Shown one piece after another: positions 17,557-39,827 of a stretch of 64,000 bases of DNA. Made by a program: the position numbers and the translations under genes. The DNA is taken from assembly GCA_029907475.1 (NCBI GenBank), contig JARYLU010000001.1, positions 1-64,000 of the forward strand, read 5' to 3'. How positions within the stretch are numbered: the first letter of the stretch is position 1; the number at the start of each line of letters is the position of its first letter. A model generated the notes under the pieces. It made no database searches. It worked only from the letters and a program-made list of their open reading frames with translations, and had not been told where the DNA came from. Source of the stretch: Bacillota bacterium (lineage in GTDB: Bacteria; Bacillota; DSM-12270; Thermacetogeniales; Thermacetogeniaceae).

Positions 17557-17881
17557 ATCCATCTAATACCAATTAAGCGATTAGCTTGCAAATATTGGCT
17601 TAAGAAATTCATAAAAAAGTTTCGCTTTAGAGGCAGGAATTTGGTAAGTTTTTCACGAATATATCCAGCATGTGCGGGCTAATTGCTCTCTTAGTTTAGT
17701 TGCGCGGGGGGTCTTTCTCTTCGAACGAGCAACCCGGGCGTAGAATAACAGGGAAAGCCCTCCCCGGTAAGGTTAGGGGCGGAAAATAACAGGAAACCCG
17801 GGAGGTGAAGGAGGGAAGCCAGGATTTTCAGCGTTTCTTTGCAATTTCTGTCGGAAGTCCTCTCAAAAAAGCAGGGGATCT
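17557..17881. other. Intergenic region before folD1, unidentified
   Basis: About 325 bases with no credible gene. It is AT-rich to about 17690 (with inverted arms TTAAGC and GCTTAA near 17570 and 17600), then rich in purine runs and short GGG/CCC hairpins such as GGGGGGT pairing with ACCCGGG. It may be part of a leader or an eroded mobile element whose right end lies just downstream. I recognise no known RNA. Confidence 0.4.
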
Positions 17882-17983
17882 ATGGCAGCTAGGGCGGGAA
17901 CCGCCCGAAGTTACGCCTGCTTAAAAGTTCATTCGGTGAAGCAGGAAGCTCCTTCCGGTGGGGGAGGGGTGGTTCACTCTTAA
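17882..17983 (+). mobile_element. Orphan TnpB right end / omega-RNA-like remnant
   Basis: The conserved tail of an IS200/IS605-type tnpB element without the gene. In one frame it encodes GTARSYACLKVHSVKQEAP and then a glycine stretch ending VVHS and a stop, a tail style known from TnpB. At the DNA level it has GAAGTTACGCCTG, GAAGCAGGAAGC, a GC-rich hairpin and GGTTCAC at 17971-17977, the usual element end. A second copy lies near 39740. It stops 24 bases before the folD1 start, so folD1's ribosome site occupies the place where a guide would be. Confidence 0.6.
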
Positions 17984-18001
17984 TAGTGAGGAGGAAGAGA
18001 A

Positions 18002-18871
18002 ATGGCTGCAGAGCTTCTGTTAGGAAAGCCCCTGGCGGAGAAGATCAAGGCCCAGGTAGTCAAGGATGTAGAAGAATTAAAGGCCAAAGGCGTTTATCCG
18101 AGTTTGGTGGCAGTTCAAGTGGGTGAAAACGAAGCTTCGCGTGTTTATACAAATGCCCAGCGGAAAAATGCTGAGGCTTGCGGGATTAAATACGAACTCC
18201 AGGAATTGCCTGCAGACACCACACAGGAACAGCTTTTAAAACATATCGCGGGTTTGAATGCTGATCCCAATGTGACGGGAATCATTCTGCAAATGCCCGT
18301 CCCTCCCCAGATTGATGCAAAGGTTTGCCAGTGGAGCATTGCTTACGAGAAAGACGTCGAAGGGGTAACCCCAACGAATATGGGTTTAGTTTCGTTTGGA
18401 AAGCCCCGGATGGCGCCCTGTACGGCTTTGGGGGCTTACGAGTTGATAAAATCCACCGGTGTTGATATCTACGGGAAAGAGGTAGTAGTAGTCGGTCACA
18501 GTGACATCGTAGGAAAACCGGCGGCACTCCTTCTCTTAAACAGTTTCGGAACTGTAACCGTTTGTCACATTGCAACAGGTCAGCGGGGGCTCACTGAAGC
18601 GCACGTGAGACGGGCGGAAATTCTCGTCGTTGCTGTAGGTGTTCCTCATTTAATTAAAGGGGAATGGATTAAAGAGGGCGCGATTGTTGTAGACATCGGA
18701 ATCAACACAACGAAAGACGGCAAGATCGTCGGGGACGTTGAAACCGAGGTGGCAAAAGAAAAAGCGGCCTGGATTACTCCGGTTCCAGGTGGTGCCGGAA
18801 CTGCAACGACCGCGATTTTAATGCGGAATACCATTGAAGCGGCCAAGTGGCAACTGGAGAAGAAGCAATAG
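18002..18871 (+). CDS. folD: FolD-type methylene-THF dehydrogenase, atypical
   Basis: A 289-residue member of the FolD family, which interconverts methylene-, methenyl- and formyl-tetrahydrofolate. Seen: ILQMPVP near 95 with the conserved Gln, EKDVEG near 117, GHSDIVGKP near 165 (nucleotide site) and TPVPGGAG near 260. The tyrosine of the active site is kept (Tyr49), but the catalytic lysine four residues later is Gln53. In human MTHFD1 and E. coli FolD this lysine is needed for the cyclohydrolase step, so this copy is predicted to act mainly as a dehydrogenase. A second folD follows. The start ATG follows GAGGAGGAAG. Confidence 0.9.
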   Translation: MAAELLLGKPLAEKIKAQVVKDVEELKAKGVYPSLVAVQVGENEASRVYTNAQRKNAEACGIKYELQELPADTTQEQLLKHIAGLNADPNVTGIILQMPVPPQIDAKVCQWSIAYEKDVEGVTPTNMGLVSFGKPRMAPCTALGAYELIKSTGVDIYGKEVVVVGHSDIVGKPAALLLLNSFGTVTVCHIATGQRGLTEAHVRRAEILVVAVGVPHLIKGEWIKEGAIVVDIGINTTKDGKIVGDVETEVAKEKAAWITPVPGGAGTATTAILMRNTIEAAKWQLEKKQ

Positions 18872-18890
18872 GACGTAAGCTGGCTGACTT

Positions 18891-18931
18891 GGAGAACTGG
18901 ACCGCAAGATGGGGGTCCAGTTCTCCTTTCC
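18891..18931 (+). terminator. Strong hairpin between the two folD genes
   Basis: GGAGAACTGGACC at 18891-18903 pairs perfectly over 13 bases with 18914-18926, followed by TTTCCTTAT. It could end or attenuate the folD1 transcript before folD2. The tail is not a pure T run. Confidence 0.6.
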
Positions 18932-18963
18932 TTATCAAGCAACTAAAAAGAGGAGGTAGTCCG

Positions 18964-19821
18964 ATGGTGGCAGTTCGTATTGATGGTAAGGCGATAGCTG
19001 AAGGGGTCAAGCAACAATTGGCCCAGGAGGTTGAAGCGCTTAAAGCGAAGGGAATTAATCCAAGCATGGCTCTGATTCTTGTAGGGGATGCCCCGGATTC
19101 TGCTCTTTATGTACGCAGCAAAGCAAAAGCGTGTGAGGGGGCAGGGGGTTTTGCCGAAACGCACCATTTACCCGAAGATGTCAGTTTAGAACAGTTGCTT
19201 GCTTTAATTGATAAGCTGAACAGGGACGATAGTGTGCACGGAATTCTTGTTCAGCTTCCTTTGCCTCACCACCTTCATCCTTACGAAAAACAGGTAATGG
19301 ATGCGGTTGCACCCGAGAAGGATATCGACGCTTTCCACCCGGTTAATATCGGAAATCTGGTCATAGGGGATGAATGTTACTGGGGTGTAACAGCTTACGC
19401 CTGCATCAAAATTCTTGAGAACCTGGGTATCGAGTTTAAGGGGAAGCACGCCGTTGTGGTCGGCTGGTCGATTGAAATTGGAAAACCAGTTAGCGTGATG
19501 CTTTTTGAAAAGGGGTGTGCTGTCACTCTCGTTCATCCCGATGCCGATTTTGTACCCTATACGAAGCAGGCAGATATTCTGGTTACTGAAGTGGGGAGAC
19601 CAAGGGCGATCACGGGAGATATGATCAAACCAGGTGCGATTATCATTGATACCGGTTCGAACTGGGTAGATGGGAAGTCGGTCGGAGATGTTGATTACGA
19701 AAGTGCGGTCGAAGTTGCTGGTTACATTACCCCGGTTCCGGGTGGGGTTGGGCCGGTGAGAATTATCATGCTGATTTACAACCTCGTCCAGTCAGCAAAA
19801 CGAAAAGCCGGGGTTAGCTAG
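18964..19821 (+). CDS. folD: Second FolD (dehydrogenase/cyclohydrolase)
   Basis: 285 residues. Unlike the upstream copy it keeps the catalytic pair: Tyr49 and Lys53 in ALYVRSKAKA. Also seen: ILVQLPLPHH near 96, EKDIDAFHPVNIG near 120, and TPVPGGVGPVR near 257. The nucleotide motif reads GWSIEIGKP, with Trp where Arg is common, which may shift NAD/NADP preference. It most resembles a working cyclohydrolase or bifunctional FolD. The ATG follows AGAGGAGGT. Its stop shares one base with the GTG of xseA, so it is coupled to that gene. Confidence 0.9.
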   Translation: MVAVRIDGKAIAEGVKQQLAQEVEALKAKGINPSMALILVGDAPDSALYVRSKAKACEGAGGFAETHHLPEDVSLEQLLALIDKLNRDDSVHGILVQLPLPHHLHPYEKQVMDAVAPEKDIDAFHPVNIGNLVIGDECYWGVTAYACIKILENLGIEFKGKHAVVVGWSIEIGKPVSVMLFEKGCAVTLVHPDADFVPYTKQADILVTEVGRPRAITGDMIKPGAIIIDTGSNWVDGKSVGDVDYESAVEVAGYITPVPGGVGPVRIIMLIYNLVQSAKRKAGVS

Positions 19822-22226: not shown

Positions 22227-22860
22227 GCTCGGTATCGAATAGTGTACGGAATAAAGTGAATATGGGAGCAGGTGGTGCAGTATTCTAGTCGGGACGGCCG
22301 GCTTCAAAGGCGGGCCTAAAAATCCGTCGCGGGCACATCGATGAAGTTCCTGGTGCAGGCTTCCGAAGCCCAGTCGGGGGTTTGTGCTGGGAGTTAAGGA
22401 GGAAGGGCGATCTACAAAGGCATGTAGGCGTTGACCCTCCCTCCGCGGAGGCCTACGTGCGTGGGAGCCAAACTACGGCGTGGGTGAAACCTGCATGTGG
22501 TACCAGACGAGTGCTATGTGCAGAGTAGCCTGCCTTGAGTGGTGCTGGTGGATAACGAGAAAAAGCTTCTTGTTTCAAGTGGGCCCTAGAAACAGGAGGT
22601 CCCGTTTGAAACCTTCACTGCAAAAGAGGCTAGAAGTCGGTTGAACCGCCGAGGAAAACTCCTAGACTGTCTGCCTCCGGGCCGGCACCTGCTGGGGATT
22701 AAAGTGTGGACTAAGTGGTAATCTAGCCCTGTTTTCGGCGACGAAACAGAACAGGCTTAAAGGGGAACCACCAAAACGGTGACGTTTTGGCGCCTTGTGG
22801 GGAAAACCTGCTAGACCTAAGCCACAATATTTACTCAGCAGGTGACCACCTGCTTAACAT
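22227..22860 (+). ncRNA. ole: OLE RNA (ornate large extremophilic RNA)
   Basis: A 780-base gap between ispA and a small polytopic membrane protein gene, followed by dxs. This is exactly the position of OLE RNA (about 600 nt) in extremophilic and anaerobic Bacillota. The stretch has no coding character and is packed with complementary arms: GGCATGTAGGC with GCCTACGTGC (22419-22460), CCAAAACG and CGTTTTGG closed by a GTGA loop (22771-22790), CTGTTT with AAACAG, and AGCAGGT with ACCTGCT (22837-22854). OLE is known to bind the membrane protein OapA, encoded next door, and to affect energy, Mg2+ and cold or alcohol tolerance in Halalkalibacterium. Exact ends are estimates. Confidence 0.87.
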
Positions 22861-22866
22861 AGAAAT

Positions 22867-22958: not shown

Positions 22959-23546
22959 GTGCTTGCGCGGAACCGGTGGTTGCGCCGGGGTTTAGGGAGC
23001 GCTGCTCTTACCTTCGTTCTGAGTTTAATTTTTAGTTACCTGGCTGAATTCCTCTTAAGGCATATTTTAATTCTTTTCTTAGCTTTTCTTCTTTTACTGG
23101 TGGTTATTCTGATCGGAGTTATTTCGGACATGATCGGTTTTGCCGCAGCCGCAGCGGAATTCGGCCCTTTAAATGCGCGGGCCGCGAATAAAGTCTGGGG
23201 AGCGCGCCAGGCGGTGAGGCTGATCAAGAACGCCGATCAGGTTGCAGTTTTTTGTAGCGACGTGATGGGAGACATTTCAGCTACGCTTGCAGGGGCCCTC
23301 GGAGCTGTGATTGTTTTTCGCCTCCTTGCGGATCACCCGGGAGCCGAGGTTGGTTGGCTAACTACGGTGATGACAGGGCTGGTAGCAGCTGCCAGTGTAG
23401 GGGGGAAAGCGTTTGGTAAGGGTTTGGCATTGCGGGAGGCTACAGAAATTATGTTCCGGTTGGGCCAGCTAATTGCCTGGGTAGAAAGATTAACCGGATA
23501 CGAGTTTTTCCGTCCGACCAAAGGGGAAAAGGGGAAGAAAAAGTGA
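22959..23546 (+). CDS. oapA: OLE RNA-associated membrane protein OapA
   Basis: 195 residues with about four hydrophobic segments (roughly 14-33, 36-66, 105-128 and 135-150) and a lysine-rich C-terminus (KGEKGKKK). In Halalkalibacterium, OapA (about 21 kDa) binds OLE RNA and carries it to the membrane. Seen between helices: [20 protein letters not shown] near 93, with conserved-looking Asp residues. It starts at a GTG with CAGGTG upstream, just after the RNA, and overlaps dxs by four bases (GTGA). The context makes the identification strong. Confidence 0.9.
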
Positions 23547-38939: not shown

Positions 38940-39638
38940 TTGGTTATGGGAAACTGGAAGCAATCCGGGAAAGTTTTGACACTCGCCGCCGATGCCAGCG
39001 GTGCTTACCAGGCCGCGCTGGCCGGGCAGGCGGTATTGGTTGTTGATGTCATTGATATGGGAACAACTCTTGAGGCTGCCCTTCGTTCCGGGGCGCACCT
39101 GGTTTTGGGAGCCAGCCCCACACCCTGCAAGGCTCCGGTTCCTGTAAACCCTCGCGCCGTTGGCAGGTATGCCGCCCGGGAAGCACGAAAGCATAAATCC
39201 AGAATTGTTTTAATTGCCGAACCCCGGGTTGGGCAGGAGGAGGAGCGTATGGTTCAGGTAGCTGGCGTCCTGGAAGGACTCAAAGAAGAGGGAGTGGAGC
39301 CCCGCGGGATCTATCCCAATCTCGGTGCAGAGACGGTGAAGCTTGTAGATTTCGGGGGCTGTATTGTGGTTGCGGTTTCTGCATGCGGGGGCACGGCCTT
39401 TGACGCCGCTTTTAACGCCGGGGCCCCCGTGGTGACGGGAACCGTGGCCCGCACCTTGGGACGCACGGGTTGGGAGAACGCGGAGTCGGCGGTCGAAAGG
39501 GCCCTCCGGTTAGTGGAAGAGGAGAAATGCGGTCTTTGTGTTGTTGCTTCCAGCAGTAAATCTCTGGAAGATGTGCTGGCAGCCCAATATTTCTACCAGC
39601 GGATCCTGGCAGGGGGCTTCGTTTCTTTTCGATTTTAA
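38940..39638 (+). CDS. Unknown protein, weakly ComB-like
   Basis: 232 residues. I do not recognise it with confidence. Seen: VLVVDVIDMGTTLEAALRSG near 30-49, which recalls the start of 2-phosphosulfolactate phosphatases (VIDVxRATTT), then LGASPTPCKAPVPVNP, LIAEPRVGQEEERM near 93, and IVVAVSACGGTAFDAAFNAG near 140. No membrane helix. The TTG at 38940 sits eight bases from AAGGAG; an ATG six bases on is further from it. It lies between a gene stub and a tnpB remnant, so it may have arrived with the rearrangement. Confidence 0.6.
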   Translation: MVMGNWKQSGKVLTLAADASGAYQAALAGQAVLVVDVIDMGTTLEAALRSGAHLVLGASPTPCKAPVPVNPRAVGRYAAREARKHKSRIVLIAEPRVGQEEERMVQVAGVLEGLKEEGVEPRGIYPNLGAETVKLVDFGGCIVVAVSACGGTAFDAAFNAGAPVVTGTVARTLGRTGWENAESAVERALRLVEEEKCGLCVVASSSKSLEDVLAAQYFYQRILAGGFVSFRF

Positions 39639-39790
39639 CCTTCCCGCCGGAAGTGACAAAGGTGAACCCCTCCGGCACTTCGAGGATGATATTATCTCGT
39701 GCGTTGGCTTTGGAAGCGGCTGATCGCTTCTCAACCGTGGGAACCACGGGAAGTTACGCCTGTGGAACTAACCTGTTCGGGTTACAATGA
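39638..39790 (+). pseudogene. tnpB remnant lacking the zinc finger
   Basis: An open frame overlapping the previous stop encodes PPEVTKVNPSGTSR, as in TnpB just before its CxxC zinc finger, and then jumps to ILSRALALEAADRFSTVGTT and GSYACG, as found after the zinc finger near the TnpB C-terminus. The four-cysteine segment between them is missing, suggesting an internal deletion. It has no start and is not a working nuclease. Confidence 0.6.
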
Positions 39791-39827
39791 AGCAGGAAGC
39801 CCCTCCCGTGAGAGGGAGGTAGTTTGC
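39740..39827 (+). mobile_element. Second orphan TnpB right end / omega-RNA-like element
   Basis: The 23 bases from 39740 match the first copy (from 17897) at 20 positions, including GAAGTTACGCCTG. Both then have GAAGCAGGAAGC and a GC-rich hairpin (here CCCTCCC with GAGGGAGG) and end with GGTAGTTTGC, corresponding to GGTGGTTCAC. It stops 22 bases before the start of the MFS gene. In intact elements this part forms the scaffold of the TnpB guide RNA. Confidence 0.6.

What the first reader, a model, noticed from the sequence alone, without database searches (positions are those of the whole stretch)
17882..18001. Orphan TnpB right end abutting the folD1 ribosome site
The TnpB-type tail (GAAGTTACGCCTG, GAAGCAGGAAGC, hairpin, GGTTCAC) is present without tnpB. 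The bases that would act as the guide (from 17978) contain the GAGGAGG of folD1. It could be a plain remnant, or a guide-RNA-like leader that now influences folD1 expression or is used by a TnpB or TnpB-derived repressor encoded elsewhere.
Basis: partly seen in the sequence, partly recalled or inferred. Interest (0 to 1): 0.68.

Follow-up and report, generated by a model that had tools for sequence, protein, structure and literature searches.

The report
Decayed ends-only IS605 transposon before folD
The sequence in front of folD is an old, partly decayed miniature of an IS605-type jumping gene that kept its two ends, including the guide-RNA scaffold, but lost its genes; it is an ordinary kind of genomic relic, with no evidence that it works as a guide RNA or controls folD.

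Summary
Window 17889-17977 carries the right end/ωRNA scaffold of an IS200/IS605 TnpB element; the same end follows tnpB genes in other genomes. It is more than a right end: a decayed left end can be traced from about 17843, making a ~135-bp ends-only (PATE-like) element. The same insertion sits before folD in the sister species G001, where the terminal hairpin is gone. It is missing from the other family members checked, whose leaders are correspondingly shorter. The window's genome holds three further copies of this end. Full tnpA+tnpB elements with the matching left end, preceded by TTAC, occur in a congener and another family member.

No tnpB in the window's genome carries this scaffold; G001 has only a short OrfB fragment. 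Between the two species the folD copy diverges near the neutral rate (63% identity against 55% at fourfold sites, p=0.11). The "guide" overlaps the folD ribosome site only because the element landed there. A guide-RNA or TldR role is not supported. A hydrogenase-leader copy is mildly better conserved (78% against 61%), leaving small room for exaptation there. Ordinary; new member of a known kind.

The parts
17633..17660 (+). conserved promoter-like element GCAGGAATTTGGTAAGTTTTTCACGAAT (sigma-H-like) upstream of folD; flank of the insertion, not part of it
   Evidence: present upstream of folD in 17 of 17 genomes compared; 11 matches of the generalised pattern in the genome, 0 in the reversed control; sigma-H assignment recalled, not tested
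17838..17842 (+). TTTGC, degenerate target (TTTAC in full-length elements) preceding the left end
   Evidence: intact relatives have TTAC directly before the left end; the empty site in G004 and G015 reads TATTTTAC at the equivalent spot
17843..17888 (+). decayed left end (LE) of the ends-only element
   Evidence: position taken from the alignment with the G001 orthologue, whose LE is found by a model that did not contain it (E=1.6e-7); the window copy alone gives no hit here
17889..17977 (+). right end / omega-RNA scaffold: hairpin 1 (17892-17906), GAAGTTACGCCTG (17907-17919), GAAGCAGGAAGC (17938-17949), terminal hairpin (17948-17970), terminus TTCAC
   Evidence: same end follows tnpB in L038 and L041
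17978..18001 (+). flank that would be read as guide; contains the folD ribosome site; identical in G001
18002..18871 (+). folD (first of two tandem folD genes)
39632..39827 (+). second copy of the same right end (39732-39827), with remains of the tnpB C-terminus (TKVNPSGTS / ALALEAA) and a truncated left end in front, upstream of an MFS gene

Best explanation
It is a decayed ends-only derivative (a PATE: left end fused to right end, about 135 bp, 17843-17977) of an IS200/IS605 element whose right end is the TnpB omega-RNA scaffold. An IS605 Y1 transposase (TnpA) acting in trans probably placed it 3' of a TTAC-like target just upstream of the folD ribosome site, in the common ancestor of G000 and G001. 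It has been decaying since and is carried passively in the folD/OLE-operon 5' leader. Shown: the right-end identity, the left end in the sister copy, the shared insertion, the missing segment in relatives, related copies and full-length relatives. Inferred: mobilisation in trans, passive transcription from the upstream promoter, and absence of function.
For: The same right end follows TnpB genes in L041 and L038. Copies at folD, at a hydrogenase-type gene (L057/L036) and at gcvT (L037) share a head (CCGCCGGG, hairpin, GATGAAAGGCGG) fused to CTACCGCGGG. That head is the left end of complete tnpA+tnpB elements in G006 (444002-445796 and 472899-474693) and G002 (C289), all preceded by TTAC. A left-end model without the folD copies finds it in the G001 folD leader, E=1.6e-7. 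The promoter-to-ATG distance is 310-341 nt in G000/G001 and mostly 159-224 nt in genomes without the element; the GGTGAG-to-ATG distance is 192-200 against 61-77 nt. At gcvT in G015, a filled copy stands beside an empty paralogue and an empty orthologue in G004. At folD, right-end identity between G000 and G001 is 63% against 55% at fourfold sites (p=0.11), and G001 has lost the terminal hairpin.
Against: The left end of the window copy is too decayed to be recognised without the G001 orthologue. GAAGCAGGAAGC is fully conserved in both orthologues despite 55% fourfold identity. The hydrogenase-leader copies are more conserved (78% against 61% at fourfold sites, p=4e-4) with compensatory stem changes, so decay may not be neutral at every site. 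The only full-length elements read end to end (G006, G002) have a somewhat different right-end subtype.
Confidence: 0.87

Rival explanations
1. Exapted cis-acting leader: the element's folded RNA in the folD 5' UTR now tunes translation or stability of the folD/OLE-operon mRNA.
For: It lies in sense between a conserved promoter-like element and the folD ribosome site. The structure is folded and covarying across copies. The hydrogenase-leader orthologues are more conserved than neutral. Solo IS605 stem-loops conserved as RNA near genes are reported in Borrelia plasmids (PMC2775950).
Against: At folD the right end diverges near neutrally and the terminal hairpin is deleted in G001. The insertion is absent from all other family members compared. 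The sense orientation is shared by intact copies that interrupt genes, so it is not a sign of regulation. The fold of the leader is only mildly better than shuffles (z about -2).
Confidence: 0.08
2. Guide RNA in trans: the scaffold plus the folD flank is used by a TnpB or a TldR-like repressor encoded elsewhere to bind or cut DNA near folD.
For: The scaffold is nearly complete in G000, and the sequence after TTCAC would by position be the guide.
Against: The OrfB hits of the genome are an IS605 TnpB whose end is unrelated, a 568-aa TnpB/Cas12f-like protein and a fragment; none of these loci holds the scaffold. G001, which shares the insertion, has only a ~104-codon OrfB fragment above cut-off and a broken scaffold. 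The guide is simply the insertion flank.
Confidence: 0.02
3. Right-end fragment left by deletion of a full-length tnpA+tnpB element in place, rather than insertion of an already miniature element.
For: The copy at 39.7 kb is clearly such an in-place relic with tnpB pieces.
Against: Three separate sites (folD, hydrogenase, gcvT) share the same LE-RE arrangement without tnpB pieces, which fits movement as a short element better; the decayed folD copy cannot by itself exclude in-place deletion.
Confidence: 0.12

Closest known systems
PATEs (palindrome-associated transposable elements), ends-only derivatives of IS605-type transposons (Haloquadratum walsbyi, PMC3119063; Halanaerobium hydrogeniformans, PMC7290912)
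   Same: short, no transposase, near-terminal hairpins at both ends, ends matching full-length IS605 elements, no target duplication expected, strain- or species-specific insertions
   Different: few copies, in another Firmicutes family; the folD copy is old and decayed; it retains the whole TnpB omega-RNA scaffold rather than only terminal palindromes
IS200/IS605 elements with tnpA and tnpB (G006, G002)
   Same: same left end after TTAC, related right end ending in TCAC
   Different: the folD element has no genes; right-end subtype GAAGTTACGCCTG/GAAGCAGGAAGC instead of GAACTCAAGCCTCC/GAAAGAGGAAGC
Free-standing IS605 stem-loops beside Borrelia lipoprotein genes (PMC2775950)
   Same: IS605 end structures kept next to genes without transposase
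   Different: there placed at gene 3' ends and reported conserved as RNA; here before the gene and, at folD, decaying
TldR guide-RNA transcription factors (PMC13418256)
   Same: derived from TnpB and its guide RNA
   Different: no protein partner found here, no scaffold conservation at folD

Membership tests
IS605-derived PATE | no transposase gene, short length | tested here: met
   17843-17977, 135 bp; no tnpA or tnpB in the region
IS605-derived PATE | left and right ends related to a full-length IS605 element | tested here: met
   right end; left end: found in the G001 orthologue, E=1.6e-7, and matching full-length elements; in the window copy only by alignment to G001
IS605-derived PATE | insertion 3' of a short target without target duplication; empty site in relatives | tested here: met
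   TTAC before full-length copies; TTTTAC at the empty site in G004/G015 and shorter leaders without the element; the target at folD itself has decayed to TTTGC
IS605-derived PATE | mobilised in trans by a Y1 transposase | not testable with these tools
   a Y1 transposase is encoded in the genome in an unrelated IS605 element; activity on these ends unknown
TnpB omega-RNA (ancestry) | scaffold at the transposon right end, overlapping or downstream of tnpB | tested here: met
   L041 and L038 carry tnpB directly upstream of the same scaffold
TnpB omega-RNA (functional today) | cognate TnpB protein | tested here: not met
   no TnpB with this right end in G000; only a fragment in G001
TldR system | nuclease-dead TnpB-like protein with a guide RNA matching a promoter region | tested here: inconclusive
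   no candidate near any scaffold copy in G000; highly diverged proteins could be missed by PF01385 and PF07282
TldR system | guide RNA expressed and processed | not testable with these tools
   needs RNA data

The most novel reading that the evidence does not exclude
A short family of IS605 ends carrying the TnpB omega-RNA scaffold has been kept as structured 5' leaders of metabolic genes (clearest at the hydrogenase-type gene in G000 and G001, possibly weaker at folD), so a guide-RNA scaffold has become a cis-acting mRNA element without its nuclease.
Probability: 0.07. Interest if true: 0.6.

Novelty: new member of a known kind. Interest (0 to 1): 0.2.

Why it matters
As it stands it is a worked example of how TnpB guide-RNA scaffolds outlive their nuclease as miniature transposons in gene leaders, and it explains an apparent guide RNA over a ribosome site as an insertion flank. 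It matters more only if the hydrogenase-leader copies prove to be selected as RNA.

Tried and rejected
Rfam: no family above threshold at the site; the best sub-threshold match is the H. pylori sRNA HPnc0580 (23.6 bits against a gathering score of 37), not usable as evidence. A sigma-70 promoter or a terminator on the element's strand: none found. A switch between the RE hairpin arm (CUCCUU) and the ribosome site: possible by base pairing in G000, rejected because the hairpin is missing in G001. Sense orientation as evidence of regulation: rejected, since the three full-length elements read, which lie in or against genes, are also in sense. Phage collection: no match. Nucleotide HMM of the left end on the window copy alone: no hit at 17843; a weak hit (8.4 bits) at 17751-17774 lies upstream of the conserved GGTGAG motif, hence outside the insertion as bounded by the empty sites, and was not interpreted. 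The class-level model search added nothing, because the class held the same 20 genomes.

Full report
What is there. The exact two-box pattern occurs twice in the 3.01-Mb genome, at 17907 and 39750 of this window, once each in two of the 40 related genomes searched, and in 6 stretches among 84,980 species genomes.

The link to TnpB. In two of those six stretches, a Nitrososphaera genome (L041) and a Syntrophomonadaceae genome (L038), a protein with TnpB domains ends just upstream of, or overlaps, the same sequence (PF01385 1.6e-20 and PF07282 5.7e-18 in L041; PF07282 1.2e-20 in L038). In the window itself the second copy at 39.7 kb keeps pieces of the tnpB C-terminus (TKVNPSGTS and ALALEAA, matching L038) in front of the same end. 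So the sequence is the right end, or omega-RNA scaffold, of an IS605-type TnpB element. Its three helices are supported by covariation over eight copies (the alignment is small and the structure came from a subset of these sequences).

It is more than a right end. A covariance model finds four copies of the end in the genome: folD, MFS, a hydrogenase-type 4Fe-4S gene at C3:116152 and an ABC transporter at C11:39874. It finds two in G001 and one strong copy in G015 before gcvT. At hydrogenase, gcvT and one G001 site the right end is preceded by a shared ~50-base head. A search with a sequence built from that head finds it at the start of complete tnpA+tnpB elements in G006 (two copies) and in G002, a member of the window's own genus. 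All of these are preceded by TTAC and end in GTCAC about 1.8 kb later. The head is therefore the left end, and the short copies are left end joined to right end. At folD the left end is recognisable in G001 by a model that did not contain it (E=1.6e-7). In the window copy it is too decayed to be seen alone and is placed by alignment with G001.

The insertion history. The G001 folD leader has the same insertion at the same place, with the terminal hairpin deleted. In the other family members a promoter-like box lies mostly 159-224 nt from the folD start, against 310-341 nt in G000 and G001, and a second conserved motif 61-77 nt against 192-200 nt. Three genomes fall outside the promoter range: G036 (127 nt), G010 (38 nt, shortened leader) and G014 (477 nt, other inserted sequence). 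G004 and G015 have TATTTTAC at the equivalent spot. At gcvT in G015 one gene copy is filled and a second copy in the same genome, plus the orthologue in G004, are empty.

Is it selected? Between G000 and G001, fourfold-degenerate sites are 55% identical in folD and 61% in the hydrogenase gene. The right end is 63% identical at folD (46 of 73, p=0.11 against 55%) and 78% at the hydrogenase gene (69 of 88, p=4e-4 against 61%, p=0.005 against 65%, which is close to the 64% seen in the rest of that leader). The folD copy gives no evidence of constraint. The hydrogenase copy gives a mild signal with paired changes in two stems. Independent insertion of related elements at the same target could also produce that, and only two species were available.

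Could a protein use it? The OrfB-type loci of G000 are a complete IS605 with an unrelated end, a 568-aa TnpB/Cas12f-like protein and a fragment. None holds this scaffold. G001 has only a fragment of about 104 codons above cut-off. A guide-RNA use at folD is therefore unlikely. The putative guide is the insertion flank, which happens to hold the ribosome site.

Comparison with the known. Ends-only IS605 derivatives are described as PATEs in Haloquadratum (PMC3119063) and Halanaerobium (PMC7290912). The Halanaerobium example likewise joins a short left end to the end of tnpB and the whole right end. Conserved solo IS605 stem-loops next to genes are described in Borrelia plasmids (PMC2775950). 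The folD element is a new, decayed member of this kind.

Limits. The genomes are drafts except G006. The two-species comparison is small. The binomial tests treat sites as independent. No RNA data exist here. The identity of the organism was not established; G006 may be Thermacetogenium phaeum judging from its size, which is recalled and not tested.

Noticed in passing
window 17633-17660: GCAGGAATTTG...CACGAAT, resembling a sigma-H promoter (recalled consensus), lies upstream of folD in 17 of 17 genomes compared; the generalised pattern occurs 11 times in the genome and 0 times in the reversed control. It may drive the folD-OLE operon.
   Followed up: partly
window 17800-17815 and equivalents in relatives: A GGGAGGTGA(G/A) motif is conserved 61-77 nt upstream of folD in genomes without the insertion; possibly the start of a short upstream ORF.
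   Followed up: partly
window 22256-22865: OLE RNA (Rfam RF01071, 521 bits) downstream of a polyprenyl-synthase-like gene and upstream of a probable OapA-like membrane protein (22959-23546) and dxs; the folD leader lies at the head of this gene cluster.
   Followed up: partly
window 18002-19821: Two adjacent folD genes only about 39% identical to each other, a pair kept in nearly all family members.
   Followed up: no
L057 and L036 (hydrogenase-type gene leaders in G000 and G001): Orthologous copies of the same miniature element, better conserved than fourfold sites and with paired stem changes; the best place to look for exaptation.
   Followed up: partly
L002 (G000:C25:1950-5144): A 568-aa TnpB/Cas12f-like protein beside a short ORF containing a repeated YSTWLRGLKTETA unit, perhaps a small repeat array.
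   Followed up: no
L114 (G015:C3) against L117 and L115: Filled and empty sites of the miniature element between a glycine-riboswitch-like leader and gcvT.
   Followed up: yes
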